Shown here in pieces: positions 8,883-48,998 of a stretch of 64,000 nt of DNA. Origin of the DNA: Halobacteriales archaeon YIM A00013 (GTDB lineage Archaea; Halobacteriota; Halobacteria; Halobacteriales; Haloarculaceae). Position numbers and translations under genes: made by a program. How positions within the stretch are numbered: position 1 is the first letter of the stretch; the number at the start of each line of letters is the position of its first letter. A model generated the notes under the pieces. The model worked only from the letters and a program-made list of their open reading frames with translations, did no database searches and had not been told where the DNA came from. The stretch is from NCBI GenBank assembly GCA_025041195.1, contig JAKCFM010000001.1, positions 2,294,001 to 2,358,000 on the forward strand, read 5' to 3'.

Positions 8883-9147
8883 CGGCCAGCGCAGCGGTCA
8901 TAACCGTGAGCACGGTGGTGACCAGTACGAACGTTCCGAACGCGAGCACGAACGCCAGACTCGCGTACAACAGCGGCGAACCAACCTCAGGAGCCGGTCC
9001 GAGCAGCTCGAACACTCGAATTGCCCACCAGCACAGCGCGAACGCGACGCCAACGATTGCACCGATGACCGCGTTCTGAAACGCGCCAATTTCGTCGAGA
9101 AAGGCCACCGTCGGCGAACGAGCGGGCTCCGTCGATCGGCTGGACAT
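8866..9147 (-). CDS. small two-span membrane protein
   Basis: 93 residues from the ATG at 9147 (protein begins MSSRSTEPARSP). After a ~20-residue polar N-terminus there are two long hydrophobic stretches, roughly residues 27-48 ('AVIGAIVGVAFALCWWAIRVF') and 57-86, ending in a short basic tail 'AVKRME'. It is probably an integral membrane protein of unknown function. It converges on and slightly overlaps the phosphoesterase, and is divergent from the deacylase gene at 9290, with a shared ~140-base promoter region between them. Confidence 0.7.
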   Translation of the reverse strand: MSSRSTEPARSPTVAFLDEIGAFQNAVIGAIVGVAFALCWWAIRVFELLGPAPEVGSPLLYASLAFVLAFGTFVLVTTVLTVMTAALAVKRME

Positions 9148-9289
9148 ACGTGGTGTACGCTGAGCGATCAAATAGGCGCTTTGGGACGATCCAACAGCGG
9201 TAATTAAACCAGAAATTCGCCTGCTTGATGGCGACCTTGGGTCCATAAAATCGAACGGTCTAAGAGTGTGGATTTACCGACTATACACA

Positions 9290-10246
9290 ATGACGACGCT
9301 CGGCACCGCAACCGCGTGTCCCGGTGAGATCGCCACGGGGCAGCTGACCGTCGGTGAAGCTCGCGATGGCAGCGACGTCTCGCTCCCGGTTGCGGTGATC
9401 AACGGACAGAACGACGGCAAAACGCTCTACATCCAGGCTGTAAGCGACGGTGACGAACTCAACGGACTGGGCGTGATCCAGCGACTGGTGCCACAGCTCG
9501 ACCCAGCGACAATCGATGGGCAGATTCTCATCGTTGGGATCGTCAACTACCACGCGTTTCACGTGAGCCAGCACCGCAATCCGATCGACGACACGAAGAT
9601 GAATCGGGCGTATCCGGGTGATCCAAACGGGATGTCTACCGAACGGATCGCACACGCCACGTTTCAGGCGGCGACCCGCGCGGATCTCGCACTCGATCTC
9701 CACCAGGGCTCGACCAGTCGCATGATCGACGAAACACGCGTCCGCTGTGGCTCGCGCCACCGGCTGCACAGCGACTGCCTTGAGCTGGCGAAGGTGTTTG
9801 ACTGTGGATTTATCCTTGATCAGAAAGGACCCGATGGCCAGCTTGCACGGGCAGCGCCAAACGAGGGCGTCCCCACAATCGATCCGGAGCTCGGCGGATC
9901 GGTCGGCTGGGATGGAGATAGCATCGAACGCGGGCTGCGTGGCATCGAGCGCGTGTTGAAATACTACGGCTTTCTCGAAGGGACGGTCGACATCAACCCG
10001 CAGACGCGTGCCAACGGCTTCGAACAGTACGGCGCGCCCGCGGGCGGTTTGACACGATTTCACGTCGAGCTCGGCGAGCACGTCGAACGAGGGAATCCGT
10101 TGTTCGATGTGACCGACCCGTTCGGACGGGTGAAATCCACCATCACCGCCGATTCGAAGGGGATATTCTGGCGGGCGCGTCGGCTTCCCCAGGTCGCAAC
10201 CGGCGAGTACGTCTGTTCTGTTGGGACTGATCTCGATGAGTATTGA
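9290..10246 (+). CDS. succinylglutamate desuccinylase/aspartoacylase family protein
   Basis: 318 residues of the zinc-dependent M14-like AstE/AspA family, which removes acyl groups from amino-acid N-termini or related amides. Visible are 'DGDELNGLGVIQRL' (the His/Glu zinc loop; the usual 'GdElnG' is present while the first ligand appears as Asp), 'GIVNYHAF', 'DTKMNRAYPGD' (substrate-binding Asn-Arg), 'ADLALDLHQG' with the second His ligand, and a C-terminal beta-sandwich ('FHVELGEHVERGNPLFDVTD'). The start at 9290 is preferred to one 24 bases upstream. The stop overlaps the threonine synthase-like gene by 11 bases, so the two are probably coupled. Confidence 0.85.
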   Translation: MTTLGTATACPGEIATGQLTVGEARDGSDVSLPVAVINGQNDGKTLYIQAVSDGDELNGLGVIQRLVPQLDPATIDGQILIVGIVNYHAFHVSQHRNPIDDTKMNRAYPGDPNGMSTERIAHATFQAATRADLALDLHQGSTSRMIDETRVRCGSRHRLHSDCLELAKVFDCGFILDQKGPDGQLARAAPNEGVPTIDPELGGSVGWDGDSIERGLRGIERVLKYYGFLEGTVDINPQTRANGFEQYGAPAGGLTRFHVELGEHVERGNPLFDVTDPFGRVKSTITADSKGIFWRARRLPQVATGEYVCSVGTDLDEY

Positions 10247-11300
10247 ACTGCGCTGTCCGGCCTGTGAGGCACGGTTCGACGATCGCTGGCGGTGTGGAGA
10301 CTGTCACTCGCCACTCGAATTTGCGTATTCGCAATCGCCGATCGATCGCGAGTCGCTCTCGCTTGCCGACGGTGTCTGGGGATTCTCGGAGCTGTTGGCC
10401 GTCGATCAAGCCGTCTCGCTCGGTGCGGGTGCCACGCCGCTAGTCGAATCGCCATGGAACTGTGAGTTCAAACTCGAATACGTTGCGCCGACGGGGAGTT
10501 TCAAAGACCGCGGTGCGACCACGGTGATCGCTCGCGCTGTGGACGTCGGTGCTGATGCGCTCATCGAGGATTCCTCAGGCAATGCCGGTGGTGCAGTCGC
10601 AACGTACGCTGGGCGGGCCGGGATGGACTGTACCATTTTCGTCCCGGAGAGTGCGCCAGAATCGAAAATTCAGCCAATCACGCGCAGCGGAGCCACCGTC
10701 GAGCGGATTGGGGGCTCGCGCCAAGACGTGGTCGATGCCTGCGTGGGAGCAGTCGAAGACGGTGCTGGCTGGTACGCCAGTCACGCCTGGAATCCCGCGT
10801 TTTTCGAGGGAACGGCAACCATGGCCTACGAAATTGCCATCCAGCGCGACTGGTCGCTCCCGGATGCGCTCATTATTCCGGTGGGCCACGGGACGCTGTT
10901 GCTCGGCGTCTATCGCGGGTTCAAACGATTGCAGGCGGCGGGGTTAATCGCGTCCGTTCCACGGTTGCTCGGCGTGCAGGCAGCCGGCTATGCGCCAATA
11001 GCCGACTCGCTCCACGAATCAGTTTCCGGGCACAACGACGTGGCTGACGGGATCCACATCACTGAACCCGTCCGGAACGACCAGCTCTTTACTGCGATCG
11101 AATCGACAGCTGGGGACTGCATCGCGATCGAACGCGAGCCCGTCGAGCGTGCGCTGAACGGGCTCCATGCAAACGGCTTCTACGTCGAACCGACGAGTGC
11201 GGTGGCGGTTGCTGGACTCGAACGCTATCGCAAACTGGGCGTGCTCGACCGTGACGACGACGTTGTCGTTCCGTTGACCGGGAGCGGTCTGAAAAAGTAG
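10236..11300 (+). CDS. threonine synthase-like PLP enzyme
   Basis: 354 residues. The N-terminal zinc ribbon has Cys7, Cys10, Cys20 and Cys23. The fold-type II PLP core follows, with the Schiff-base lysine in 'PTGSFKDRGA', phosphate-binding 'EDSSGNAGGAVATYAG', and a C-terminal 'VVPLTGSGLKK' Ser motif. Threonine synthase (O-phosphohomoserine to threonine) is the conventional call. At 354 residues it is short, and many haloarchaea carry several paralogues, so another beta-replacing or deaminating activity is possible. It overlaps the upstream deacylase by 11 bases, hinting at a shared amino-acid-derived substrate. Confidence 0.8.
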   Translation: MSIELRCPACEARFDDRWRCGDCHSPLEFAYSQSPIDRESLSLADGVWGFSELLAVDQAVSLGAGATPLVESPWNCEFKLEYVAPTGSFKDRGATTVIARAVDVGADALIEDSSGNAGGAVATYAGRAGMDCTIFVPESAPESKIQPITRSGATVERIGGSRQDVVDACVGAVEDGAGWYASHAWNPAFFEGTATMAYEIAIQRDWSLPDALIIPVGHGTLLLGVYRGFKRLQAAGLIASVPRLLGVQAAGYAPIADSLHESVSGHNDVADGIHITEPVRNDQLFTAIESTAGDCIAIEREPVERALNGLHANGFYVEPTSAVAVAGLERYRKLGVLDRDDDVVVPLTGSGLKK

Positions 11301-11331
11301 CCGGAAAACGCACAGCTGCTCGCCAGAGCTG

Positions 11332-11985
11332 TTAGAGTCGAGTGGTCTGGAGAATCTTGGACTCGGCCTTTCGGAGGTGTTCGGCTGCCGTACTCGGTGC
11401 ACAGTCGATCAGTGTTGCAATCTCCTCGACGGAGCCCTGTCGGGGGAGCTGGTAGTAGCCCACGTCCTTTGCGGCTTCGAGCGCCTGCCGTTGGCGTGTG
11501 GAGAGCAACGGTTCGGACACACCCGGTAGCCGTCCCATTCCGCTCACCTGCTCAACCGTCACCGCGAACGCGTCAGGAACGTGCTCAAGTGCCGATTGTA
11601 TCTCCTCGGTTGGTCCAAACAACGACACCGTCACTGAGCCATCGCCGTAGTTGTAGGGTGGAACCATTAGCAGGCTGCCAGCCGTGAGCGTAGCGAAGAG
11701 TTCTTTTGACGCCGCCGTCAGCTCGTTGTGGAAATACGTGTAGAAACTGTCCGCTCCGGTTGTCAGTATCTCGAAATCCAGGACGGATGGATGGGTTGAA
11801 ATCTGCGATCGAAACGCGTCGCTATCTCCCTCGATGTAAATCAACAGTCCAAGACGGTCGTCCGAAGCGTTCAGATGGAGCCCAACGACGTGGTCGAGAT
11901 ACGGTGCACTGGCGAGCACCTGGTACATTGAAGGGCTCTCATCGCGCCCGCCGACAGGTTCGATCGTCAGGCGGAGATGTTTCAT
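11332..11985 (-). CDS. bat-type HTH-10 transcriptional regulator
   Basis: 217 residues. The C-terminal HTH_10 domain (~160-215) has 'LSTRQRQALEAAKDVGYYQLPRQ' (split here as the conserved entry helix) and a recognition region 'VEEIATLIDCAPSTAAEHLRKAE'. The N-terminal ~150 residues are a beta-rich sensor resembling other bacterio-opsin activator-like proteins. It is divergent from the epimerase gene at 12074, with ~90 bases between the starts, so that gene is a plausible target. The effector is unknown. It is the second regulator of this type in the first 12 kb. Confidence 0.85.
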   Translation of the reverse strand: MKHLRLTIEPVGGRDESPSMYQVLASAPYLDHVVGLHLNASDDRLGLLIYIEGDSDAFRSQISTHPSVLDFEILTTGADSFYTYFHNELTAASKELFATLTAGSLLMVPPYNYGDGSVTVSLFGPTEEIQSALEHVPDAFAVTVEQVSGMGRLPGVSEPLLSTRQRQALEAAKDVGYYQLPRQGSVEEIATLIDCAPSTAAEHLRKAESKILQTTRL

Positions 11986-12073
11986 GGCAGTGGTTCCGCC
12001 GCATCAGCCTTTAAATCCCCCGTTGCAGTATTGCACCATCGCTACGACACAGGCCCTCCAAACACGAGTTACG

Positions 12074-13036
12074 ATGCAAGTGTTCATCGCTGGTGCGACT
12101 GGCGTGCTCGGCAAACGACTGGTTGCAGAGTTCTCCGAACACGGCTATTCCGTGGTCGGTCTCACACGGGACGGGCGGGGTGACGAGATCGTCGAATCAC
12201 GCGGCGGAGAACCCCGTCGCGGTGATCTGTTCGACGAAGCTTCGATCGTCGACGCCGCACGGGGAGCGGATGTCATCATTCACGCAGCGACTGCGATCCC
12301 GACCGACTCGCCCACGCCTGCGGCCTGGGAACGCAACGATCGCGTTCGGACGGAGGGGGCTCGGGCCCTCGTGAGGGCAGCTGACGAGGTTGGAGCGGAG
12401 CAGTTGCTCCAACAGAGCATCGTCTGGGTTGCCCGCCAGCCTGATGGCAGCAGCTATGACGAGCAGTCCCACCCACATCCTGAATCGTGGACAAAGTCCG
12501 CGCTCGACGCCGAGCTGATTGCACAAGATGGTGGCGAGGAGTACGGATTCGACGTGTCAGTGCTCCGGTGTGGCTACTTCTACGCCCCGGATTCGTACTA
12601 CACACGGGCTGACGGAGCCGGAATCGTCGATGGAGAGCGGCCAATCATCGACGGTTCAGATGGCGTTTTACTGTCGTATCTGCACGCCGACGATGCGGCG
12701 GGTGCGTTCCGCGCGGCCACAGATCACTCCTTGAGCGGGCTGTATCACGTCGTCGACGACACACCGGTCAGCGATACGGAGTTCGTCTCGACGCTCGCCA
12801 GAAACCTCGGCAGTACGCAGCCCGACGCAGTTTCGACCAAGCAGGCCAGCGCGGCGATGGGTGAGATCACCGTCGATCTGTTCACACACCCGATGGCCAC
12901 GACGAACGACGCGTTCAAGGCAGATACCGACTGGGAGCCACGATTTCCATCCTATACTGAAGGTCTGGCACAGGTCGTAGACGAATGGCAGTCAGAAGGG
13001 TATCTCGTAGATTCTCCGCAGAGCAACACTGACTGA
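12074..13036 (+). CDS. NAD(P)-dependent epimerase/dehydratase (extended SDR)
   Basis: 320 residues. The N-terminal Rossmann fold begins immediately with 'FIAGATGVLGKRLV' (Gly-rich motif, ~3-16), followed by 'GLTRD' and a 'VIIHAATAIP' strand. An atypical SDR active site is likely: 'QQSIVWVA' supplies the Ser region, but a clear YxxxK is not evident, so it may be an NmrA/NAD-binding or reductase-like member. The ATG at 12074 is chosen because it directly precedes the first strand. Divergent from a bat-type regulator. The substrate is unknown. The stop is ~100 bases from the AT-rich island. Confidence 0.8.
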   Translation: MQVFIAGATGVLGKRLVAEFSEHGYSVVGLTRDGRGDEIVESRGGEPRRGDLFDEASIVDAARGADVIIHAATAIPTDSPTPAAWERNDRVRTEGARALVRAADEVGAEQLLQQSIVWVARQPDGSSYDEQSHPHPESWTKSALDAELIAQDGGEEYGFDVSVLRCGYFYAPDSYYTRADGAGIVDGERPIIDGSDGVLLSYLHADDAAGAFRAATDHSLSGLYHVVDDTPVSDTEFVSTLARNLGSTQPDAVSTKQASAAMGEITVDLFTHPMATTNDAFKADTDWEPRFPSYTEGLAQVVDEWQSEGYLVDSPQSNTD

Positions 13037-13137
13037 TGATAGATCGGAATTATCGTCATTTCCGAACGTGGCTGCTCAGCTCCGGAGCGACGATGGTGAC
13101 ACGTGGGTGGTCAAATTTGACTGAAAAATGAGTAGTG

Positions 13138-14049
13138 CTAGTTTCCAACCAGTGAATTGAAAATCTCCTCAACAGACGCCTCACGTACGGAGAACGTCTC
13201 GATCGATATTCCTGAATTTTCGATCGATTCGAGGATTGAGCGGCGGTTGGATCGCCGGACCGACTTGACATGAATTTTCGATCCGTTGCGTGAGACATCA
13301 AGGATACCATCGATATCGTCGAGTGTCAAATCTATCGACTTCGAACGATCAGTGGTTTCGAAGATGAGTTCATCACTCACACCAGTTTCCTGTCGTAGAT
13401 CATCAACCGAGCCGGTTGCGACGATCTGACCTGCATTGAGAACACCAACACGATCACAGACGAGTGCGACCTGACCGAGGACATGGCTCGAAAAGAAAAC
13501 GGTAGTTCCCCGTTCATTTTCGGTGTAGACGATCTCTCGGATCAGGCGGGCACCTTCAGGATCGAGACCAGTAAATGGCTCGTCGAGAATCAGCAGTTCT
13601 GGGGAGCCAACGAGTGCCATTGCCACGGCAAGTCGTTGTTGCATCCCCTGTGAATACTCACCGACCGTTTTGGCTCCAACATCACCGAGACCAACGCGGT
13701 CTAGCAGCTTATCGGGGTCATCATTGCTGTGTTTGACATCGATCGCGTACTTCAGATGGGCATAGCCCGTTAGATTGTCGTAGCAACTGTAGCGATCCGG
13801 CAGAATGCCGATCTGCTGGTGGAGTTCACGAATGCTAGATTGTGGATCGAGACCGAGAACGCGGGCGGTTCCACTCGTCGGCGACGTGTAGTTCATCAAA
13901 ATGGCGATTGTAGTTGATTTCCCAGCTCCGTTAGGTCCAAGAAAGCCAAATATTTCACCATCTTCGACGGTCATATCAACTGCGTCGAGCGCTGTGTGTG
14001 AACTATACGTCTTTGTGATATTTGACAGTTCAATTGCGGGTGGTGTCAC
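13138..14049 (-). CDS. ABC transporter ATP-binding protein (island pair 1)
   Basis: 303 residues. Walker A 'GPNGAGKS' at ~38-45, signature 'YSQGMQQRLAVA', Walker B 'LLILDEP', D-loop and 'FFSSHVL' switch His are all intact, followed by a ~90-residue C-terminal extension typical of drug/peptide-export (CcmA/NatA/EcsA-like) ATPases. The ATG overlaps the stop of the permease at 14046 by 4 bases. With that permease it should form a full ABC-2 exporter. The genes here are markedly AT-richer than their neighbours. The likely role is export or extrusion of the Tat-precursor-derived product or protection against it (inferred from context). Confidence 0.9.
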   Translation of the reverse strand: MTPPAIELSNITKTYSSHTALDAVDMTVEDGEIFGFLGPNGAGKSTTIAILMNYTSPTSGTARVLGLDPQSSIRELHQQIGILPDRYSCYDNLTGYAHLKYAIDVKHSNDDPDKLLDRVGLGDVGAKTVGEYSQGMQQRLAVAMALVGSPELLILDEPFTGLDPEGARLIREIVYTENERGTTVFFSSHVLGQVALVCDRVGVLNAGQIVATGSVDDLRQETGVSDELIFETTDRSKSIDLTLDDIDGILDVSRNGSKIHVKSVRRSNRRSILESIENSGISIETFSVREASVEEIFNSLVGN

Positions 14050-14942
14050 GAGAGATCAGCCCTCCGGAAGCCAAGGTATCCGATCGCCGGTATGAGACAG
14101 ATCCACAGAGCCATGATGATGAGCCCAAACTCAGGTGTGAGATAGAATGGTGGTGGGCCAGAAAAAGTACCACCGTAGATCAGCGCAGTCGTTGAAATTC
14201 TTGATTCACCGCTAGCGATAACGGAAAAATACTGACTGGAACTGTTTTTCACACCGAGAATAGCGTTCGTCACCAGAAAATATGACGAATGCGGTGCTAA
14301 CCGGTCGAAGAGGAAAATCCATTGGACAGGCGGAGGATTGAGCGCATTTAATTCGTTGCCAGTAACAAAAGAATATAAAATATTTCTCACATTTTGCCAC
14401 ATGATTAGGAATATGAGAAGATATCCAAGCATGATTCCAACAGCACGTGGCGGTTGTGACACGAGCGCCGAAACGCCGTTGGCAATTGCGACGGAAAGGA
14501 GCACGTAGAGAAGCGTAGCGGCGAGAAATCCACTGAACACGAGCAACGAAAAGCCGCCATAAATCAACGTTCCTAGTACCCCTCCAATAAGCAATACACC
14601 CAAAACTGGAAGTGAAAGAGCTGCTGTCTGACCGAGAATTTTCCCAATAAGGATATCAGCTCTCGTCTGTGGAAATCCAGCGTCAAATTTGATTGATCCG
14701 GAGCGTCTCTGTCCTGCAATTGACCGATATGAGACGACAATCGCTGCTATCGGGATCAGGAGGCCGATCGGTTGCTGGAACGCCCCAAACGCTAGCCGGC
14801 CACCGAGCACTTGCTTGATGAATGGCTCTGGTGAAACTATTCTATTGAAGGAGTAGAAAAATAATAAAATTCCAAGTATCCAGTTCGTCTTTATCCTACG
14901 AAATGCACGAAATTCCTTTTTCGCAATTGGTTTCCAGTTCAT
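14046..14942 (-). CDS. ABC-2 type transporter permease (island pair 1)
   Basis: 298 residues with about six hydrophobic spans: one near ~20-35, then pairs around 55-75, 100-125, 130-155, 170-195 and a final one at ~270-290. A large hydrophilic, Ser/Asn-rich extracytoplasmic loop (~200-260) lies before the last span. The N-terminal 'MNWKPIAKKEFRAFRR' is the cytoplasmic amphipathic start common to ABC-2 permeases. It is coupled to the downstream ATPase by a 4-base overlap and lies 60 bases after the Tat-exported protein gene on the same strand, so all three are probably one transcript. Confidence 0.85.
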   Translation of the reverse strand: MNWKPIAKKEFRAFRRIKTNWILGILLFFYSFNRIVSPEPFIKQVLGGRLAFGAFQQPIGLLIPIAAIVVSYRSIAGQRRSGSIKFDAGFPQTRADILIGKILGQTAALSLPVLGVLLIGGVLGTLIYGGFSLLVFSGFLAATLLYVLLSVAIANGVSALVSQPPRAVGIMLGYLLIFLIMWQNVRNILYSFVTGNELNALNPPPVQWIFLFDRLAPHSSYFLVTNAILGVKNSSSQYFSVIASGESRISTTALIYGGTFSGPPPFYLTPEFGLIIMALWICLIPAIGYLGFRRADLS

Positions 14943-15001
14943 TAATGAAGTATTGTCATCAGTTGCTGCGAATACGTGAAAGTATCGGACAAGGGACTTA
15001 G

Positions 15002-15655
15002 TTATAAGTCGCTACTTGCGTCAACAACCGACCCAACACCGCTACCATTACCTTGTAGGTAAGAGTACGGATTGTATGTTTTATTAGCACAAGGATGCCT
15101 TACTTTTCCAACCTTATGCGAGATGAAATAACCAGATCCCGTTGAATACCACGAATTATCAATACCCTTGTAGTTCCAGCAAATTCCACCCGCATTGCCG
15201 TTGGTGGTCCCACTGTAACTCAGGACGTTGCCGTTGGAAATCGACCAGTTAATTGTATGTTCGAACTTGAACAATCGGCCAGTTGGACCACTCCCATAGA
15301 CAGTGTGACTATACGATCGAGGAACGGCCATCGTCGATGGACCGTCAGAGTCGTTTTGAGTGATTTCAGTTTCAATGGTGAGTAGCTCTTCTTCCATTTC
15401 AATCACTGCAGCTTCCTGCTCATCGGTTAATCCAGACCAGGCAGCGATAGCGGCATCCGAATCACTCGAATTGTAGAAATTCTCCAGGAAGCGTCTCACA
15501 GTCTCTGGGTCGTCAGGATCAACATCTTCTGGATTCGCATCCGTCCCTTTTGCGGTAACACTCATTGTTGGAAGCGTCGCAAGGGCAAGTCCTGTTCCGG
15601 AGAGTTTGAGCAAGTTCCGTCGGCTGATACTATCTGGGAAATTTCGTCGTCCCAT
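15002..15655 (-). CDS. Tat-exported small protein, candidate secreted peptide precursor
   Basis: 217 residues from the ATG at 15655; an upstream GTG would add four. The N-terminus is a clear Tat signal: S-R-R-N-L-L-K with Arg12-Arg13, then a hydrophobic 'GTGLALATLPTMSV' and an Ala-rich cleavage region near 35-40. Residues ~40-105 are highly acidic and helical (propeptide-like). Residues ~110-217 change character: Gly/Ser/Asn/Tyr/Trp-rich, beta-like, weakly charged, with only two cysteines (159 and 189). I do not recognise the family. The modular build resembles halocin precursors, but no specific halocin is matched. It is followed directly by an ABC-2 permease/ATPase pair. Confidence 0.8.
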   Translation of the reverse strand: MGRRNFPDSISRRNLLKLSGTGLALATLPTMSVTAKGTDANPEDVDPDDPETVRRFLENFYNSSDSDAAIAAWSGLTDEQEAAVIEMEEELLTIETEITQNDSDGPSTMAVPRSYSHTVYGSGPTGRLFKFEHTINWSISNGNVLSYSGTTNGNAGGICWNYKGIDNSWYSTGSGYFISHKVGKVRHPCANKTYNPYSYLQGNGSGVGSVVDASSDL

Positions 15656-15674
15656 AGTTCTCTGCACGTGATAG

Positions 15675-15688
15675 ATATATATATAAAT
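15675..15688 (-). promoter_or_regulatory. TATA box for the Tat-exported protein gene
   Basis: An alternating A/T run sits 20-33 bases before the ATG at 15655 on the minus strand. That spacing predicts a leaderless or nearly leaderless transcript for the Tat protein and the two ABC genes after it. Confidence 0.65.
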
Positions 15689-15967
15689 TAGCTACAATGC
15701 AGTATTCATTTGTTATTCGGTAACAACACTTATTATCACACCAAAAGTTAGCTGCAATTCATTTTCAACAACAATAGTCTAACACGTATTTTGAGGATAT
15801 ATACTTTATTCTCGTCGATATTGCTACCGTTAATAATGATTGCTCTAATCCAAATTAGGCGTAACTCAGTCCACTCGTCACAACCAGAGCATCGGAATGA
15901 AGTATACCAAGTTCACTCTTAAAATCAAGCGAAAAATGATATTCTAGAGAGCTATGAGTTCCAAACG
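15689..15967. other. AT-rich divergent intergenic region in the island
   Basis: About 280 bases between the divergent starts of the Tat protein gene and the small membrane protein gene. It is AT-rich with many short A/T runs and no credible open frame. It probably carries both promoters. A TATA-like 'GATATTC' lies ~25 bases before the start at 15968. Confidence 0.5.
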
Positions 15968-16237
15968 ATGATCATCCAACGGGTTACCCTCCAGGGATAT
16001 CTCGTATTGTTAGTTGGGTTACTGTTCATCGTCCAAAACACGCGCTCCGCGATCTCAACCGGTGTGTCCATCGCTGACGGCAGTGGTATTGTTCCCGGTC
16101 TTTTCGGAATCGGCAGCGGTGTGTTCGGATATCTCAGACCAAATCAACTCCCACGTGGGACCGAAGCCGCACCACCCTATCTGTACGCTCTGGCTTCCAT
16201 TGCGACTGTGGCGTTCGTCATCGTGATAGTCATATAA
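15968..16237 (+). CDS. small membrane protein in ABC/Tat island
   Basis: 89 residues with three hydrophobic stretches at about 9-23 ('GYLVLLVGLLFIV'), 38-52 (Gly-rich) and 71-89, ending in the membrane at 'VIVIVI'. The ATG at 15968 has no Shine-Dalgarno but a TATA-like element at the right distance for a leaderless transcript. The translation is hydrophobic and compositionally coherent, unlike the basic antisense frame. It is divergent from the Tat protein and convergent with ABC pair 2. By position it is a candidate self-protection (immunity) or accessory protein; nothing in the sequence proves this. Confidence 0.55.
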   Translation: MIIQRVTLQGYLVLLVGLLFIVQNTRSAISTGVSIADGSGIVPGLFGIGSGVFGYLRPNQLPRGTEAAPPYLYALASIATVAFVIVIVI

Positions 16238-16276
16238 ACTCCAAATCAACGACGCCCCACCAGAACAGTTCTTGAT

Positions 16277-17080
16277 TTAAATATCAGCTCTGGGGAACCA
16301 GTAGTATCCAACGGAAAATAGAACAATTGTCCATAGCAGGAGAACCAACACCATCACTGGCGTTGTGAGGAGTGGCCCAGAAACGGGGGCTCCATAGATC
16401 GCATGGGATGGGGTAACGATCTGGCTATACGCACCAAATGGACTCAACGTCCCGATAAAATGAGATATCGTCTCGGTCGTTGTGGGCTCTCCTAGCTGTG
16501 GGCCGTTGGGTTCGGCGATCTCACTGACCAGCTGTGGCCAGAACGCAGCCCAGATGTAAAATGCGATTGCAACCCCAACTGCTCGCAATCGGGTCGTTGC
16601 GACCGCAGATATTGCTGTCCCGATAGCGGTGTATGCCACACAGAGAAGAAACGTCGAACCAGCGAGTGGCCACAGCGTTCGCCACGATACAGTGATGATT
16701 GAAGTAAACGAAAGTAATTGTATAATGGTAAATGACACCGCTATTAACAATGAGATTGCAATAGATCGTGAAAGGAATACGCCTACAAAAAGATCTGCCT
16801 TGGTGATGGGAGCGCCGAATAGCAGTCTCAACCGCCCAGTTTCTCGATCCGCGACGATCGCTACTGCGGCGGTGAGCAACACTCCGAATGGGAGAACAGT
16901 CCCAACAACAAGCCACAAAGAGAGTCCGAGAGACTCACTGGTTACCGGTCCATTGGACAGAATATATCCAACAAGCGGGCCGCCAACTGTTGCTCCAAGT
17001 GCAATAGCGAGCAGAAATCGTCCAACGATCGTTCGTCGCAACACCGTGAAATCATGCCGGAGAACAGCTGAGACAGTCAT
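16277..17080 (-). CDS. ABC-2 type transporter permease (island pair 2)
   Basis: 267 residues with about six membrane spans: ~22-42, 57-80, 105-130, 140-165, 170-185 and 240-260. The loop carrying 'DRETGRLRLLFGAPITKADLFVG' is typical of ABC-2 permeases of the NosY/NatB-like group. The start (ATG, 17080) overlaps the stop of the upstream ATPase by 4 bases. Little sequence resemblance to the pair 1 permease is visible beyond topology, so the two transporters are likely distinct systems rather than a recent duplication. Confidence 0.85.
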   Translation of the reverse strand: MTVSAVLRHDFTVLRRTIVGRFLLAIALGATVGGPLVGYILSNGPVTSESLGLSLWLVVGTVLPFGVLLTAAVAIVADRETGRLRLLFGAPITKADLFVGVFLSRSIAISLLIAVSFTIIQLLSFTSIITVSWRTLWPLAGSTFLLCVAYTAIGTAISAVATTRLRAVGVAIAFYIWAAFWPQLVSEIAEPNGPQLGEPTTTETISHFIGTLSPFGAYSQIVTPSHAIYGAPVSGPLLTTPVMVLVLLLWTIVLFSVGYYWFPRADI

Positions 17081-18048
17081 TCTACGTCGCCTCTAACAGC
17101 AGTAGATTCGGCTGTTGATTTTGAGCCATCGACGTCTACAACCGCAGCAAACACATCTTCTAGTGCCGAACTATTCACTTCAAAATCAAGAACTGAACAC
17201 TCCTGGTGTATCAGCGCTATTGCATCTGCCTTGGCGATTGAAGAGTGGCAATCAATTGTCAATATGCAACCATCTGTGTGAACCGAGCTGATGGCATCAA
17301 TCGATCTGAGTTGTGAGAGCACAGAAGAATCTGCTTGCGTTTCAGTGAACAGTCGGAGTTGTTCGACAGTTCCCATTCTCTCCGACAGCGTCTCAACGTC
17401 CACAACGGACACGAGTTGTCCATCATTCAAAATGCCGACACGGTCACAAATGGCTGCAACTTCTGAGAGACGGTGACTGGCGAAAAAGATCGTCGTTCCA
17501 CTGGCAGCGTGATCTTCGATGAGCGTTCGAACGAGATCGATTCCGTGTGGATCCAGCCCCGACAGTGGCTCATCGAGAATGAGGAGCTCGGGATCTCCCA
17601 AGAGAGCCATCGCCAACACGAGTCGCTGTTGCATTCCTTTCGAGTATTCACCCGCAGGACGGTCGAACGCCTCAATAGCAAGGCCAACCTCATTTCGAAC
17701 TCGATCTAGATCATCGGAACCATTTTTTAGTCGAGCGATCGCCTGAAGCTGTTCTCTCCCGGTCATTGTGCGATATATCGAGTAGTCTTCAGGGAGAATG
17801 CCGATCCGCTGGCGAATGGATGCTGGATCAGATTCTACGTCCGTACCGAAAACGGATGCCCGACCGTCAGTCGGGGTTGTCAACCCGAGAAGAAGATCGA
17901 TTAGCGTCGTTTTGCCGGCCCCGTTCGGACCGAGAAGGCCAAACACCTCTCCAGTACGGACAGTAAGGTCGATATGATCGAGGGCTGTTATCGAAGCGAA
18001 TCGCTTTGAGAGCGATTCAATTTCGATCGCATGCTGCGTGTTCACCAC
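17077..18048 (-). CDS. ABC transporter ATP-binding protein (island pair 2)
   Basis: 323 residues. Intact Walker A 'GPNGAGKT', signature 'YSKGMQQRLVLA', Walker B 'LLILDEP' and 'FFASHRL'. The C-terminal ~100 residues form the variable regulatory extension found in multidrug/peptide-export ATPases. First gene of the ATPase-permease pair, coupled by a 4-base overlap. A TATA-like 'TCTTTACTAA' lies ~30 bases upstream at about 18080. It is AT-richer than core genes. It is related to the pair 1 ATPase (same 'EYS-GMQQRL-AMAL' core), as expected for the subfamily. Confidence 0.9.
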   Translation of the reverse strand: MVNTQHAIEIESLSKRFASITALDHIDLTVRTGEVFGLLGPNGAGKTTLIDLLLGLTTPTDGRASVFGTDVESDPASIRQRIGILPEDYSIYRTMTGREQLQAIARLKNGSDDLDRVRNEVGLAIEAFDRPAGEYSKGMQQRLVLAMALLGDPELLILDEPLSGLDPHGIDLVRTLIEDHAASGTTIFFASHRLSEVAAICDRVGILNDGQLVSVVDVETLSERMGTVEQLRLFTETQADSSVLSQLRSIDAISSVHTDGCILTIDCHSSIAKADAIALIHQECSVLDFEVNSSALEDVFAAVVDVDGSKSTAESTAVRGDVE

Positions 18049-18169
18049 TGTAATCGTGAATGATTAGCGGCAAAAATCTTTACTAACGTATCTATTCAAT
18101 GAACCATCAATAATGGCATGGAATGGCCGCATCTAGCTCGTTATCAGCGATCAAAGCCAACTAAATGCG

Positions 18170-19501
18170 TCACCGTTCGGGATGGGTCGCTCCGTCAAAT
18201 CCACCGCGAACGAGCGGTTTGGCAATATGTCGGCGGGCGCTTGGCGGCACCTCATACCAGCCCTCTTCCAGCTCACGATCGATCGGTTGTTCGACTTTTG
18301 CGGGCGCGCTCGTTCCACAGTCTCGACAGCGATATCCCTGGTCTGCACCGGCGCTTTTCATCCGGCGGCCACAGTCGGGACAAGTGGGCGTCACGCGTTC
18401 GGTATCGATGAGCGACCGGACCGCAAACTTTTCTAGCTTCAGGGTTCCACCCGAAACTTCCCCGCAGACGGTGCACTCATCGCCAACCCGAAGTTTTCTG
18501 ACGTGCGCTCTGAACCGTGCAGTCGGAGCGAACGCCACACAGTCGATCGTTCCAGTCGCGTCCATGAGTGTCGTAAACACGTGCCCCCCGCGCTTCGTTT
18601 CGGGTGCAGAATCAATCATGCCGTCAATTCGATAGGCGTGGCGATCGCCGAGCTCGTCGATCGAGCTGCCATCCTGGAGATGCGCATCGGTTCCCTGGTT
18701 CGTCACGAACAGCCGTCGCCCTGCGACGGGCTCGCTCTCGATTTCGCTGGCGACGCGTTCGCACTGGATGAGATCGTCGCCACGAATGCCATGTAAAATT
18801 GGACACGGGGTGTGTGGAACACAGACCAGCTCGTCACCGTCCGAATCGATCGTGTCCCAGACCGACGGATACGCGCCCGCAACAGCGGAGTGAACCGACG
18901 CACCGTCAACCTCGCGCGGGGTCCCCCAGCGATTTCGCTCGCGATAGGAGAGACACTCATACGTCCACTCGTCAAACGGCGGGGGAGCACGCACCCCCTC
19001 GGTGATCGACTGCTGGCGAGCGATCATCGCACCGATCGCCGCCAGCGCACCGATCCGACCGCGACCGTTCCCCCACCCAGTGTCGCGATAGCCGGCCACG
19101 TCGATCACGCGCTCGGCGTCGGCAATGGTCAGCTGCTCGGTGAGCGCCGACCGAGCGAACGCTAGTACGGCGTCGTGTGGGTCTAACGCCGTCCAATCGC
19201 CGTTTGGGGCAACAACCAGTCCTGGATTCGTCCGTGGATCGTCAACGACAGCCAACTTCTCAATGAGGGCCGTCGCAATCGACTGTGCCTGATCGGGATC
19301 GAGGGTGGTCTGCACTGCGAGTGCGCCGTTGCCGCGTGTCTTGTGCTCGACTGCGGGATTCAACCTGACGAGCAACGGCCGTCGCACAGCCGGCGGCGTG
19401 GCCTCTTCGTCTCGCAACCGCGTTATGAGCCGGTGGGCGACGTACGTTGTGCACATCCCATCGGCGCGCGAATCCGTATCATCAATCCCGATAACCGTCA
19501 C
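18170..19501 (-). CDS. tiaS: tRNA(Ile2) 2-agmatinylcytidine synthetase TiaS
   Basis: 443 residues. Converts C34 of the AUA-decoding tRNA-Ile to agmatidine using ATP and agmatine; essential in archaea. The N-terminal '[19 protein letters not shown]' is the family hallmark. '[16 protein letters not shown]' and '[20 protein letters not shown]' follow in the catalytic region. An OB-fold (~290-370) and a C-terminal zinc ribbon ('CPDCGRR...CRDCG') complete the usual order. The length fits the family. It is divergent from the HTH regulator at 19620 across a ~118-base promoter region. Confidence 0.93.
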
Positions 19502-19619
19502 AGCTGTGTTTGGCGTGCGCTCTTCAAACGGGTTTCGCCACGGCCGTTACCCACGAAAAATCGGCGAATTACGGCCGGCGACACAACGCATATATGGTTC
19601 GAATCTCCTACACCTATCT

Positions 19620-20588
19620 ATGTCTCGGTCTGCACTGGTCGGGAACGTGATAGCCATGCTTGAGGATGCGGGCTTTCTCGTGAGCGATCGGTGCGCTGTG
19701 CGACCAAAGAGCTTCGATGTGGCGGCCCGACGTGGAGCCGACGTTATTCTGGTGAAAATCCTTGGCAACATTGACTCGTTCGACACAGCCATTGGGACGG
19801 AAATGCGACGGCTCGGGCTGTATCTCGATGCCACGCCGCTGGTGATCGGCCTTCGAACGCGAGATGAACAGCTCGAACCGGGTGTCGTCTACTTCCGTCA
19901 CGGTGTTCCCGTGTTGAGTCCGGACACGGCACTGGATCTGTTCGTCGAAGAGGTTCCACCGTTGATTTACGCAGCCCCCGGTGGGCTGTACGTCAACATT
20001 GATGGCAGCGTGCTCGCCGACGCTCGCGAGGACCTGGATTTGAGCCTTGGACAGTTGGCGAGTGAACTCGGCGTCTCCCGACGAACGGTCTCGAAATACG
20101 AAGACGGGATGAACGCAAGCGTCGAGGTGGCGATCCAGCTCGAAGATCTGTTCGACGCGCCGCTTACGGATCCGGTCGACGTGTTCGAGCCCGATGATGT
20201 TCGCGACGAAGACTCGCCACCGGAAGACGTCGATGCCGACCCGGACGATCAGCCGCTTGTGTCTGTGCTTACGCGTGTGGGCTTTGACGTCCACCCCACG
20301 CTCCGGTCGCCGTTCAAAGCCGTCTCCGAACACGACGGCGAGCGCATAAAAATGCTCACCGGCCACTCGGCATTCACCCGAACGGCCGAAAAACGCGCCC
20401 GCATCATGAGCTCGGTTGGACGCGTCACGCAGACGACTTCGGTTTACGTCGTCGAAGAGACCAATCGTGAATCCGTCGAAGGAACGGCACTCATTCGACG
20501 AGAGGAGATCGAAGCGATCGACGATGGCGATTCACTCCGCGATCTCGTAGCTGAGCGCGTCGAAACCGATCGATCTGATTCGAACTAG
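19620..20588 (+). CDS. HTH-type transcriptional regulator, conserved archaeal family
   Basis: 322 residues from the ATG at 19620. A longer frame exists upstream but runs antisense through tiaS. The N-terminal ~110 residues ('[18 protein letters not shown]', '[18 protein letters not shown]') look like a restriction-endonuclease/Holliday-junction-like fold. A central XRE-type helix-turn-helix follows at ~128-180 ('[23 protein letters not shown]'), then an acidic C-terminal region. This matches the archaeal 'putative HTH-type transcriptional regulatory protein' family, whose targets are unknown. A TATA-like 'CATATATGG' lies 20-30 bases before the start, suggesting a leaderless message. The 3' end overlaps the convergent minD-like gene by 4 bases. 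Confidence 0.85.
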
Positions 20589-21715
20589 TCGAACAGTTTC
20601 CGGAGTCGGCCCAGGGCACTCGCTCGTTTTTCATCCCGACGCTCGTCACTGAAGAACGTCTCACTTTCAGACCGCCGTTCGTCGAACGCCGCCGTCGCTA
20701 CTGGGCCGCTCTCGGGGACCGATTCGTCGGACTCCGTGGTTGCTGGCAGCTCCTCTGACGATGTGTCCGCTTGTGACGAAGTATCGGTCTGCGGTGGTTT
20801 ATCGGCATGTGACGAAGTGGCTACCGGCGCCGGTGTGGAGCTCTCTGCTGGTTCTCCAGAGTCTTCAGCCGGTTCACTGAGTGGTTCCTCGGTTGATTGT
20901 GGCTCGGGGGGAGCGGTCGATTCGCTCTCCTCGTCGGAATCTGGTTCGGATTCCGTGGTTGGAGAGGTGTCTGTGGACTCAGTAACCGACTGTTGCGTTG
21001 CATACTGCCCGTCAATCTCTTCGAGTACCTCCTCACCGACCAGCGTCGCCGCAAGATCCGAAAATGAACGTGCCGCCTCGCTCACGGGTTGAGCGATGAT
21101 GTTCGACATCGTGATCCGCTCGTCGTTCGGAATTGCGGTGAGTACCTCATCACCGAGCTCGTCGATCAGCTCTTCCGTTTGTGGATCATCGCGCGCGCGA
21201 TTGACGGCAACGCCTTCGACGGCGCCACCAACGCGAGCTGTCAGTTCTCCTGTCTTTGCTGCGTCGCGGATCGCCACGACATCCGGCGTCGTGACGAGCA
21301 CCACACTGTCGGCCAGCTGCAATGGGGCGATGACTTCGTCCGACAAACCAGCACTCAGATCCAACAGAATAATCTCATACTCATCAGTCAACGGTCCGGT
21401 TGCATACTGCAAGCGAGATGGATCGGCACCGGCGTACTCATCGAGCGCCTGGGTGCCAGGAATGACCGCGAAGCCACGATCGGTCGTGTAGGTGGCTTCT
21501 TTGATGCCCGCATCGCCCGCGAGCACGTTATGGATGGTCGCTCCATCATCAGGTTGAATATCGAGAACCGGTCCGAGATTCGCCATCCCGAGATCGACAT
21601 CTACGGCGACGACGTCGTAACCGGCTGCCGAGAGCGCGGTGGCGAGATTGGCGACGGTGGTCGTTTTGCCGACGCCGCCTTTTCCGCCCGCGATCGCGTA
21701 AACCCGCCCACTCAT
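20585..21715 (-). CDS. minD: MinD/ParA-family P-loop ATPase
   Basis: 376 residues. Deviant Walker A '[11 protein letters not shown]' at 10-20, '[10 protein letters not shown]' switch I and 'LLDLSAGL' Walker B define the MinD/ParA ATPase domain (~1-245). The last ~130 residues are a low-complexity Ser/Glu/Pro/Thr-rich acidic tail ending in a short basic segment '[13 protein letters not shown]', which could be an amphipathic membrane- or partner-binding helix. Haloarchaea have several MinD paralogues that position surface machinery rather than FtsZ; which one this is cannot be told here. Confidence 0.85.
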
Positions 21716-21798
21716 ATTATGCTATTCTCAGTGAGTGAGACACAAAACTCTTCCCACGGTGCAAAGAGTACTTAGGCTCGATCCGTCTATTCCCACCA

Positions 21799-23043
21799 AT
21801 GAATGATGACGCCCAGTCGGACCGTCGGAAATACGAGTTCCGAAAGGTCATCGAAGAGCTGACCGAGTATTCCGGTTCGGGCACGCAGCTCGTTTCCATC
21901 TACGTTCCCCCAGACCGACAGCTCAGCGACGTGGTCGCCCACGTCACCCAGGAGCACTCAGAAGCCGCGAACATCAAATCGAAGCAGACCAGAACCGCCG
22001 TCCAGGACGCACTCACGTCAATCAAAGACCGACTGCGCTACTACGATAATCCGCCGGAAAACGGAATGGTGCTGTTTTCCGGGGCGATCAACACCGGCGG
22101 CGGCCAGACGGACATGGTCACGCGCGTGCTTGAGGACCCTCCCGAGCCGATTCAGTCATTCATTTATCATTGTGATTCTGATTTCCTGACTGAGCCGCTC
22201 GCAGAGATGCTCGGCGACAAGGGATTGTTCGGGTTGGTCGTCCTCGACCGGCGGGAAGCGAACGTCGGGTGGCTGAAAGGAAAGCGCATCGAGGCGGTCA
22301 AAAGTGCATCGTCGCTCGTGCCGGGCAAACAGCGCAAAGGTGGCCAGTCCGCCCAGCGATTCGCCCGGTTGCGTCTTGAGGCGATCGATAACTTCTACCA
22401 GGAAGTCGCCGGGATGGCAAACGATCTGTTCGTCCCAAAGCGCCACGAGATGGACGGCGTCCTCGTTGGCGGTCCCTCACCCACGAAAGACGAGTTCCTC
22501 GATGGCGAGTATCTCCATCACGAGCTCCAGGACATCGTTATCGGCAAGTTCGACGTTTCCTACACCGACGAATCCGGGCTTTCGGATCTCGTCGATGCGG
22601 CAGGGGAGGCGCTGGCCGAAACGGAGATGATGAAGGACAAAACCCAGATGGATGAGTTCTTCAAAGAGCTTCACCAGGGAGAGCTGGCTACCTACGGCTT
22701 CGATGCAACCCGACAGAATCTGATCATGGGTGCCGTCGATCGGCTGCTGCTCAGCGAGGATCTCCGCCAGGATGTGGTCACCTACGTCTGCGCGAACGAC
22801 CATGAGGAACGAGTGCTCATCAACCGGCGCAAGAACACCACCGATCACGAGTGTGAGGAGTGTGGGGACGTGGTGCCCGCCGGGGACGGAACCCGAGAGG
22901 ATGTCATCGAACATCTGATGGCGATTGCCGAACAGCGCGGCACCGAGACGAAGCTCATTTCGACGGACTTCGAAGAAGGTGAACAGCTGATGAACGCCTT
23001 CGGAGGGATTGGCGGGATTTTGCGCTACTCCACTGGGATCTAA
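21799..23043 (+). CDS. prf1: peptide chain release factor aRF1
   Basis: 414 residues, the usual aRF1 length. Domain 1 carries the stop-codon-reading N-I-K-S motif at residues 58-61. Domain 2 has the catalytic G-G-Q in 'GKQRKGGQSAQRF', which triggers peptidyl-tRNA hydrolysis in the ribosome. Domain 3 includes a C-terminal zinc-ribbon-like 'CEECGDVVPAGDG'. It recognises all three stop codons. Transcribed divergently from minD with ~83 bases between starts. No anomalies were noticed. Confidence 0.96.
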   Translation: MNDDAQSDRRKYEFRKVIEELTEYSGSGTQLVSIYVPPDRQLSDVVAHVTQEHSEAANIKSKQTRTAVQDALTSIKDRLRYYDNPPENGMVLFSGAINTGGGQTDMVTRVLEDPPEPIQSFIYHCDSDFLTEPLAEMLGDKGLFGLVVLDRREANVGWLKGKRIEAVKSASSLVPGKQRKGGQSAQRFARLRLEAIDNFYQEVAGMANDLFVPKRHEMDGVLVGGPSPTKDEFLDGEYLHHELQDIVIGKFDVSYTDESGLSDLVDAAGEALAETEMMKDKTQMDEFFKELHQGELATYGFDATRQNLIMGAVDRLLLSEDLRQDVVTYVCANDHEERVLINRRKNTTDHECEECGDVVPAGDGTREDVIEHLMAIAEQRGTETKLISTDFEEGEQLMNAFGGIGGILRYSTGI

Positions 23044-40021: not shown

Positions 40022-41038
40022 TTATAGCCGAATGTCGAACGCGTCACCGTACCGACCAGACAGCCCGGCACCGAGTGCATACGCCGTTGCCAGCACCCCA
40101 CTCTGGAGCCGATCACGAAGTCCGTACTCGGGGGTGAACTCCTCGACGACAGGGGGGCGATCGAGTTTCGATTCGAGTTCCGTAAGGAGCGCATCCCGCG
40201 TGCCGAGATGATCGACGAGACCGCGGTCGACGGCATCTGCGCCGAGATACACGCGCGCTTCGGTGTCGCGAACGGCCGCCGCATCTAGCTCGCGACCAGC
40301 TGCAACACGTTCGACGAAATGGTCGTAATAGTCGTCGATGAGTCCCTGGAGATAGGCACGATCGTCGTCGTCAAGCGACTTGAGTGGCGTACCCGCGTCT
40401 TTGTACTCCCCGGCAGTGAACTGCTCATAGCTGAGTCCGAGCCGGTCTGCGAGGTCGCTCGCGTTCACGCGAGAGCCGATCACGCCGATCGAACCGATCA
40501 GCGTCGCTTCGCGTGCCCAGATGCTGTCACAACCACTGGCAATCCAGTAGCCGCCGCTTGCGCAGGTGTCGGTCGCATACGCGATCGTCGGCCCATCGAA
40601 TGATGACGCAGCGTTCCGGATATCTTCGCTCGGAACAACCTCTCCACCGGGCGTATTCAACCGAACGATCAGCGCCTCGACGGCACGGTCGGCGTCGGCG
40701 CGTTCGATCTGCTCGACGATTGCATCCGCACCGGCCGTCTGTGAGCCCGTTGGCATCGAACCGTACAGTCCGTCCCTGGTGATCGGTCCGCTAACTGTTA
40801 CCTCTGCGACGGTGTACGTCGGTAACAATCCGCCGACAATGCGGCTGGCGAGCTGTCCAGCGAAGACGCCCGAGAGGATAACGAGTACCACCCCAAACAC
40901 GGTTCGCCTCCCTGGAAGAAATACGAACAACGCCCAGCCAAGCACTACGCCGAGACTGAGACCAATGAGTGCAATCCCCGCCCTGAGAAGGCCGGTGAGT
41001 CGACGATCCGATGACATCACCGTGTCGAAAGCTGACAT
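40022..41038 (-). CDS. sppA: signal peptide peptidase SppA (S49 family)
   Basis: 338 residues from the ATG at 41038; one seven codons later is also possible. Two hydrophobic spans near the N-terminus (~20-40 and 46-72) anchor it. The Ser/Lys dyad is visible: Ser161 in 'CASGGYW' and Lys213 in 'GEYKDAGTP', 52 residues apart, the spacing of the archaeal enzyme (Ser162/Lys214 in Thermococcus). 'RLNTPGGEV' and 'LIGSIGVIGS' complete the S49 core. Degrades leftover signal peptides in the membrane. TATA-like TTTTACG lies ~25 bases upstream. Confidence 0.92.
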   Translation of the reverse strand: MSAFDTVMSSDRRLTGLLRAGIALIGLSLGVVLGWALFVFLPGRRTVFGVVLVILSGVFAGQLASRIVGGLLPTYTVAEVTVSGPITRDGLYGSMPTGSQTAGADAIVEQIERADADRAVEALIVRLNTPGGEVVPSEDIRNAASSFDGPTIAYATDTCASGGYWIASGCDSIWAREATLIGSIGVIGSRVNASDLADRLGLSYEQFTAGEYKDAGTPLKSLDDDDRAYLQGLIDDYYDHFVERVAAGRELDAAAVRDTEARVYLGADAVDRGLVDHLGTRDALLTELESKLDRPPVVEEFTPEYGLRDRLQSGVLATAYALGAGLSGRYGDAFDIRL

Positions 41039-41101
41039 ACAACAGGTACTAAAAGAGCGCGTAAAACGATACTGGAATCGGAAAAACACGGCAATATCCG
41101 C

Positions 41102-41350
41102 CTAGTCTTCGTCTGGTGCCCACGAGAGCGTCAACGTTATCGTCTGGTTGTCCTTGCCGATCATCCGCGACCGCTCTGTTATCTCTGTTTCGCAGTCGAT
41201 CGTCGGTGACGGCTGCAATGTCACCTCCTTGTTCCCCACTGTCACTCGCATCGGGGACGACTCGTCATCGAACTCGGCAGCGATATCGCGAAGATATCTG
41301 GCAACGTCTCCCCGACTGAGATCGTCCTTGAATCGCGTCGTATCAGCCAT
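41102..41350 (-). CDS. amphi-Trp domain protein
   Basis: 82 residues from the ATG at 41350; the longer frame upstream is not supported. The pattern 'LSRGDVARYLRDIAAEF', then 'VTLQPSP', and C-terminal 'TITLTLSWAPDED' with the single Trp matches the small haloarchaeal amphi-Trp family, of unknown function. It is divergent from tfs with ~177 bases between. It lies downstream of the intergenic region of sppA, tail to head on the same strand. Confidence 0.8.
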   Translation of the reverse strand: MADTTRFKDDLSRGDVARYLRDIAAEFDDESSPMRVTVGNKEVTLQPSPTIDCETEITERSRMIGKDNQTITLTLSWAPDED

Positions 41351-41527
41351 CAGTACCACCGGAGGAAACGTTGTGCACCGAGCCATAAATACTGAAACCA
41401 CCAGATTGCTGTCCACTACTACCTGCTTCAGTGTGCATTGGTACCAATCCACCGACAGCGATGTTGCTCTGTCGGTCCAAGATACACAATCCAGGCGTTT
41501 ATACAGTCCGAACAACTGCTGACTGAT

Positions 41528-41848
41528 ATGAAGTTCTGCGACGAGTGCGGCTCGATTATGCACAAAGATGGCGGGATCTGGAAGTGTCGTTCCTGTGGAT
41601 TTGAAACGGGGGGCGACAAAGCCGAGGAAGCTGCGATGATCACTACAGAACAGCAAGAGGACGGCGGGATCATCGACGTGAGCGACGCCGAAGACAAAGG
41701 ACTTCCAACGACGTCTGTCGTCTGTCCGGAGTGTGAAAACGACCGGGCGTACTACTACATGCAACAGATCCGGTCCGCTGACGAGTCCGAAACACGATTT
41801 TTCATCTGTACTGAATGTGAACACCGCTGGCGGGAAGACGACCACTGA
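41528..41848 (+). CDS. tfs: transcription factor S (TFIIS/RPA12-like)
   Basis: 106 residues. Two zinc ribbons: N-terminal Cys4/Cys7/Cys20/Cys23 and C-terminal 'CPECEND...CTECEHRW'. The inserted hairpin has the acidic 'RSADESETRFF' (Asp-Glu), which reaches the RNA polymerase active site and stimulates cleavage of backtracked RNA. An acidic linker joins the domains. Because the Asp-Glu pair is intact, it is predicted to be cleavage-active rather than an inhibitory paralogue. Confidence 0.94.
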   Translation: MKFCDECGSIMHKDGGIWKCRSCGFETGGDKAEEAAMITTEQQEDGGIIDVSDAEDKGLPTTSVVCPECENDRAYYYMQQIRSADESETRFFICTECEHRWREDDH

Positions 41849-41981
41849 CAGTCGTCCCCCAGTCAGCTCATTCGTCCGATAAACCGACATTTTGATTACA
41901 GGCTACTCCGATACCTGTTAGCAGTAATGGACAATATTCCGAATTCTTTCTCCCATCGTCTTGAGCGGGTAGTAGCCTAGA

Positions 41982-48310: not shown

Positions 48311-48496
48311 GTATCGGATTTATGTTTACCACCATAAAAATCGGTCGTATGGACGCCCAGCGGACGCTACAGCAAACCGACGGGTTGTGGCGAATTTTGT
48401 GGTGGAAATCTGCTCTCTCGGTCCAGTGATTCGGTTGTCGTTTCGAAGGCGCTTCATTCGATTAGTTTATGTTAAGATATTAGATACTAAAAATAG

Positions 48497-48922: not shown

Positions 48923-48998
48923 GATCCGTGCAATCTCTCGGGAACGAGTTTTTCGATCGTGAGTAAATTATTTCATCCAGGAGCTCCTACAGTGGTGT

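What the first reader, a model, noticed from the sequence alone, without database searches (positions are those of the whole stretch)
13138..18048. AT-rich island: Tat-exported precursor, small membrane protein and two ABC-2 exporters
Five genes in ~4.9 kb form a compact unit: a Tat-signalled small protein with an acidic propeptide-like section and a distinct C-terminal module, directly followed by a permease and ATPase; a divergent 89-residue membrane protein; and a second ATPase/permease pair pointing the same way. Composition is clearly AT-richer than the flanks. This is the layout of secreted antimicrobial or signalling peptide loci with dedicated export and immunity transporters, but no known halocin is recognisable. 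It could be a new haloarchaeal bacteriocin-like system.
Basis: partly seen in the sequence, partly recalled or inferred. Interest (0 to 1): 0.72.

Follow-up and report, generated by a model that had tools for sequence, protein, structure and literature searches.

The report
Candidate haloarchaeal secreted toxin-immunity island
A small, AT-rich, horizontally acquired gene island in a salt-loving archaeon encodes a Tat-secreted protein of an undescribed, patchily spread family together with membrane pumps that repeatedly travel with it, most likely a bacteriocin-like weapon with its self-protection, although no activity has been shown.

Summary
A congeneric genome has the flanking genes next to each other with about 87 bp between them, so the 5.1-kb block was gained (or, less likely, lost) as a unit.

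The Tat protein belongs to an unnamed family found only in Halobacteria: 32 of 391 genomes, 17 of 86 genera, some members on plasmids. No Pfam, NCBIfam or PDB relative covers its mature part. An ABC-2 permease/ATPase pair lies within about 2.1 kb in 17 of 37 loci (about 1 expected by chance). Gene order varies, and the pairs come from several ABC lineages. In five loci the Tat gene is truncated or broken but the pair is intact. Loci without the pair often have a second short Tat beta-protein, or a small membrane protein or CPBP protease, nearby.

Best reading: a halocin-like secreted effector with ABC-2 self-immunity. Tat already exports the protein, so the pair is more likely protection than export. 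The 89-residue membrane protein and the second ABC pair are not conserved partners. Activity is inferred, not shown.

The parts
13038..18169 (.). AT-rich island between convergent SDR/epimerase and tiaS genes
   Evidence: Absent in congener G183, where the 92%-identical flanks are separated by about 87 bp; G+C 48.5% vs 58.8%
15002..15667 (-). Tat-exported precursor: signal with RR at 16-17, acidic helical section about 46-95, 8-strand beta domain about 97-219; no lipobox visible. ATG at 15655 is the likely start
   Evidence: start inferred from a TATA box
15680..15687 (-). TTTATATA box centred about 28 nt upstream of ATG 15655 (probable leaderless promoter; inference)
   Evidence: sequence
14046..14942 (-). 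ABC-2 permease 1 (PF12679), 60 bp downstream of the Tat gene, same strand
   Evidence: adjacency of this kind recurs in 17 of 37 family loci
13138..14049 (-). ABC-2 ATPase 1 (DrrA-like), overlapping permease 1 by 4 bp
15968..16237 (+). 89-aa two-TM membrane protein; member of a free-standing haloarchaeal family, not a conserved partner
16277..17080 (-). ABC-2 permease 2 (PF12679)
   Evidence: relative alone elsewhere in G277
17077..18048 (-). ABC-2 ATPase 2
   Evidence: relative alone elsewhere in G277
12065..13036 (+). left flank: SDR/epimerase-family gene, shared with G183
18170..19501 (-). right flank: tiaS (tRNA-Ile2 agmatinylcytidine synthetase)

Best explanation
The core is a three-gene cassette, Tat protein - ABC-2 permease - ABC-2 ATPase (15667 down to 13138). 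The Tat protein is a secreted, non-enzymatic effector that acts on rival haloarchaea. It is exported folded by Tat, with an acidic helical section ahead of a beta-sheet module, and that section is probably shed. The ABC-2 pair gives the producer self-immunity by removing the effector, or the damage it causes, from the membrane. SHOWN: Tat signal, family, synteny, mobility, and intact pairs beside truncated or broken Tat genes. INFERRED: antagonistic activity, processing, immunity role. The second ABC pair and the 89-aa protein are extra cargo of the same island and need not take part.
For: Family: 32 of 391 Halobacteria genomes, 17 of 86 genera, and none outside the window's order among 393 phylum genomes. 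Co-localisation: complete ABC-2 pair within about 2.1 kb in 17 of 37 loci, plus a permease alone in 2; 16 PF12679 hits per 3.7-Mb genome would give about 1. The linkage survives different gene orders and orientations and involves several ABC-2 lineages, so it is not just shared descent. Mobility: precise empty site in G183, aberrant G+C, relatives on plasmids of Halobacterium hubeiense and Natribaculum breve. Intact pairs stand beside truncated or broken Tat genes in L033, L082, L086, L097 and a second L078 locus, and a related pair stands without any Tat gene in G277, as expected of retained immunity. Loci without the pair carry other candidate partners: a CPBP/Rce1-like protease (L034), a 109-aa 3-TM protein (L035, L037), small TM proteins (L087, L091, L092). 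No conserved Cys, His, Met or acidic catalytic site; conserved residues are Trp, Gly, Leu, Gln. Halocin C8 is likewise a Tat-exported precursor that is cleaved outside the cell (PMC11509114).
Against: No activity is known for any member; annotated members seen are 'hypothetical protein'. 18 of 37 loci have no ABC-2 pair. The most conserved part is the C-terminal beta half, whereas toxins in arms races are often hypervariable there. The window protein shares only about 20-27% identity with its relatives. The own-genome second copy (L080) has an intact Tat gene but only a degenerate permease and no ATPase. Orphan ABC-2 pairs are common in any case, so persistence beside truncated or broken Tat genes is weak evidence.
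Confidence: 0.5

Rival explanations
1. The Tat protein and the ABC-2 pair form one envelope machine of the NosD-NosFY type: the exported protein is not a toxin but works with, or is driven by, the transporter to load, extract or mature another envelope component.
For: Pair 1 is of the PF12679 type, the permease family to which NosY belongs (own knowledge); tight operon with a 4-bp overlap.
Against: No conserved metal ligands, patchy distribution in 8% of genomes, mobile island, loci lacking the pair, pairs from several lineages; no NosD-like domain in Pfam.
Confidence: 0.2
2. The secreted protein is a signalling or self-recognition factor and the ABC-2 pair senses or clears it.
For: Secreted, non-enzymatic and variable between strains; tandem short Tat beta-proteins in five loci could be ligand/partner pairs.
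Against: No linked sensor kinase or regulator was recognised in the window island; no direct evidence.
Confidence: 0.12
3. The island is a chance pile-up of unrelated accessory genes (orphan ABC-2 pairs, a small membrane protein, a secreted protein) at a permissive convergent intergenic site.
For: Pair 2 and the 89-aa protein have no conserved link to the Tat gene; relatives of both pairs sit apart in G277.
Against: The Tat gene/ABC-2 link itself recurs in 17 of 37 loci against about 1 expected.
Confidence: 0.13

Closest known systems
Halocin C8 (ProC8/HalI)
   Same: Haloarchaeal precursor exported by Tat and matured outside the cell, with a pro-section ahead of the C-terminal module (PMC11509114)
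   Different: ProC8 carries its own immunity peptide (HalI) and a 76-aa mature C8 that I recall as Cys-rich; here the C-terminal beta domain has 0-3 Cys, no family model matches, and candidate immunity is an ABC-2 pair
Lactococcin 972-type bacteriocin loci
   Same: Small secreted beta-rich protein next to a membrane protein and an ABC ATPase (from own knowledge)
   Different: Sec-secreted, about 66 aa, other sequence; neither Pfam nor NCBIfam placed any of 33 members there
Lantibiotic protection ABC (LanFEG) and DrrAB
   Same: ATPases 1 and 2 score best against DrrA and well against the lantibiotic-protection model
   Different: Both are far below the curated cut-offs (about 230 vs 312; about 168 vs 310 bits), so similarity of type only
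HmHapP (HFX_0892) of Haloferax mediterranei
   Same: Secreted haloarchaeal precursor; proteolysis frees a helical N-terminal antagonistic peptide (PMC12893001)
   Different: Sequence not available here, so homology not tested; no ABC partner is mentioned in that paper
Listeria Zea (lmo2686, 4k15) and BAS0735 (3c5p), fold only
   Same: Best VIA-align matches over the whole beta domain: Z 7.3 (93 residues, 3.5 A) and 6.6 (99 residues, 2.8 A); next Z 5.3
   Different: Z under 8 may be only a common arrangement; Foldseek not significant; Zea is a secreted RNA-binding protein (PMC6907008)

Membership tests
Halocin C8 family | Tat-exported precursor | tested here: met
   RR motif in 30 of 33 members, hydrophobic stretch after it
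Halocin C8 family | Cys-rich C-terminal peptide of about 76 aa | tested here: not met
   2 Cys in the last 100 residues of the window protein, 0-3 in relatives
Halocins in general | Killing of related haloarchaea | not testable with these tools
   needs a culture assay
Halocin H4 | Sequence homology to HalH4 | not tested
   the Haloferax mediterranei plasmid record was not held under the accessions tried
Lactococcin 972 family | Match to a curated lactococcin 972 model | tested here: not met
   no such hit among 33 members at E up to 1 in Pfam or NCBIfam
LanFEG / DrrA ABC transporters | ATPase above the curated model cut-off | tested here: not met
   TIGR01188 229.8 and 226.4 vs 312.45; TIGR03740 167.7 and 168.4 vs 309.75 bits
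ABC-2 transporters | ABC_tran ATPase plus ABC2_membrane permease in one operon | tested here: met
   PF00005 and PF12679 above cut-off for both pairs
NosDFY-type systems | Exported protein with conserved metal ligands or a NosD-type domain | tested here: not met
   no Cys, His or Met (beyond the initiator) conserved in 55% or more of members; no Pfam domain
Polymorphic toxin systems | Conserved N-terminus with variable C-terminal toxin | tested here: not met
   in most related pairs the C-terminal beta half is as conserved as, or more conserved than, the pro-section
Zea-like secreted beta fold | Significant structural match | tested here: inconclusive
   Foldseek E 0.1; VIA-align Z 7.3

The most novel reading that the evidence does not exclude
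A previously undescribed class of haloarchaeal protein bacteriocin: a Tat-exported, beta-sheet effector of unrecognised fold with interchangeable protection modules (ABC-2 pair of several lineages, a second short Tat beta-protein, or small membrane proteins/CPBP protease), spread on islands and plasmids.
Probability: 0.4. Interest if true: 0.72.

Novelty: new variant of a known kind. Interest (0 to 1): 0.5.

Why it matters
Halocins are thought to be nearly universal among haloarchaea (review PMC11509114), yet few have sequenced genes, and the best known carries immunity within its own precursor. A conserved effector/ABC-2 module would give a sequence handle to find many more, supply an ABC-type immunity candidate, and make archaeal antagonism testable by gene deletion in culturable named strains (Natrialba, Halopiger, Natrinema, Halobacterium).

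Tried and rejected
Single-protein scan of genome contigs with the window protein: no relative; the family needs a profile. A full-length profile with the Tat signal gave 263 of 391 genomes 'with a match', mostly signal-only; replaced by a mature-part profile. Hits L041, L045 and L046 were set aside as unrelated larger proteins. Wider alignments were too divergent for pattern search. Viral contigs: none. Plasmid tblastn with the window protein: none; with a relative: two records. Foldseek against PDB and viral models: nothing at E <= 0.001. The Halopiger relative gave a poor model (pLDDT 51) and was not searched. Direct repeats at the island ends: nothing over 9 bp. The 89-aa protein as immunity partner: rejected as a conserved feature. 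No held paper describing this family was found; Makarova et al. 2019 (mBio), the most relevant survey, is not held, so prior description there cannot be excluded.

Full report
OBSERVATION. The six genes are real and placed as described. Both ABC pairs are above Pfam cut-offs (PF00005, PF12679). The Tat protein has only a weak TAT_signal hit and the 89-aa protein none. The block is 48.5% G+C against 58.8% elsewhere, about 7 SD below other windows of that size.

THE ISLAND IS MOBILE. A DNA search of the seven genomes of the genus shows congener G183 with the same flanks (window 9001-13037 at 92.4%, window 18170-22000 at 90.5%). There the SDR/epimerase gene and tiaS are separated by about 87 bp and the 5.1-kb block is absent. 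The site lies between two convergent genes. No direct repeat over 9 bp and no recombinase was seen, so the mechanism of entry is unknown. Aberrant composition favours gain over loss in G183.

THE TAT PROTEIN DEFINES A FAMILY. A single-sequence search found 19 of 391 Halobacteria genomes with weak matches, some of them false. A profile of the mature part finds members in 32 of 391 genomes and 17 of 86 genera. Among 393 genomes of the phylum, all matches are in the window's order. None of 33 members matches a Pfam or NCBIfam family other than signal-type or chance hits, nor a PDB chain beyond the signal region. Members seen in annotated records are 'hypothetical protein'. Conserved features: twin Arg, an FDP motif, L80, Q84, W141, G168 and G210 in window numbering. 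No Cys, His, Met or acidic residue that could be catalytic is conserved.

ANATOMY. The AlphaFold model of the window protein (mean pLDDT 74.5, mostly above 80 for residues 51-220) has three helices (54-95) followed by eight strands (97-219). The helical section is strongly acidic (-0.27 net charge per residue), the beta domain neutral (+0.02); the family means are -0.15 and -0.08. In five loci (L035, L037, L081, L083, L084) a second, shorter member with (or, in L035, as recovered, lacking) its own Tat signal, and without the helical section, lies beside the long one, so the beta domain is an independent module. Foldseek finds no significant match. VIA-align's two best rows (Listeria Zea 4k15, Z 7.3; BAS0735 3c5p, Z 6.6) cover the whole beta domain and stand above the rest (5.3 and below) but remain under the level that the tool's note calls trustworthy. 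A TTTATATA box sits about 28 nt before ATG 15655, suggesting a leaderless transcript from that ATG rather than GTG 15667 (inference).

SYNTENY. In 17 of 37 loci a complete ABC-2 permease/ATPase pair lies within about 2.1 kb of the Tat gene. In the own-genome paralogue (L080) and its G183 counterpart (L043) only a diverged or decayed permease is left. With 16 PF12679 hits per 3.73-Mb genome I estimate about 1 by chance. The order varies: Tat-permease-ATPase; Tat-ATPase with the permease opposed; Tat with the pair opposed or on both sides. The linked permeases and ATPases do not form one clade. Both facts argue for selection on the association. The 18 other loci (5 close, 13 divergent) lack the pair. 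Five of them have the tandem short Tat protein, one (L034) a CPBP/Rce1-like membrane protease, and several a small membrane protein beside the Tat gene (L035, L037, L087, L091, L092).

DECAY PATTERN. In L033, L082, L097 and a second L078 locus only the C-terminal part of the Tat protein remains; in L086 it is split between frames. The neighbouring pair is full length in each. In G277 a relative of pair 1 (permease 49%, ATPase 62% identity) stands without a recognisable Tat gene, and a relative of pair 2 (59%, 58%) stands at another site. Retained pairs without the secreted protein fit an immunity role, though orphan ABC-2 pairs are common.

WHAT DOES NOT BELONG. The 89-aa protein has relatives in some 10-20 genomes, but the ten loci examined share no neighbour and none has a Tat family gene. 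Pair 2 has no demonstrated link to the family. Both may be separate cargo.

INTERPRETATION. The Tat signal means the precursor needs no ABC exporter; this is established for Tat substrates in general (own knowledge) and for ProC8 specifically (PMC11509114). The pair is therefore more likely protective than exporting. Together with patchiness, mobility, divergence, alternative neighbours and decay, the most likely function is a secreted antagonistic protein with self-immunity, at about 0.5. A NosD-NosFY-like machine (0.2), a signalling factor (0.12) and a chance assembly (0.13) remain.

STATUS OF NOVELTY. I found no held paper describing the family, but the main survey of archaeal antimicrobial genes (Makarova et al. 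2019) is not in the library, so prior mention is possible. If it is an archaeocin, it is a new variant: Tat precursor known, beta effector and ABC-2 immunity not known to me in haloarchaea.

Noticed in passing
L083:9778-10254, L084:8647-9120, L081:8887-9345, L037:8551-8991, L035:7367-7666: Short (about 100-158 aa) proteins, all but L035 with a Tat signal and consisting of the beta domain alone, lie next to the long family member in loci that lack the ABC pair; a possible two-component arrangement.
   Followed up: partly
L080:9506-10147 (G000 C1 about 317 kb): Second family member in the same genome, syntenic with congener G183 (L043), with a degenerate permease and no ATPase.
   Followed up: partly
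window 15968-16237; L152-L161: The 89-aa two-TM protein belongs to a free-standing small membrane protein family with no Pfam model and no conserved neighbours.
   Followed up: yes
L098 / L078 (Halobacterium hubeiense plasmid pSTJ001): One plasmid holds two full family members and a remnant of a third beside an intact ABC pair.
   Followed up: partly
window 58211-59916: A third ABC-2 ATPase/permease pair in the window (PF00005 and PF12679 hits), outside the island.
   Followed up: no
window 41001-42000 and 48001-50000: Further AT-rich dips (52-53% G+C) that may mark other acquired genes.
   Followed up: no
model mf96ecc4011e0, residues 114-221: Weak fold resemblance of the beta domain to Listeria Zea (4k15) and BAS0735 (3c5p).
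   Followed up: partly
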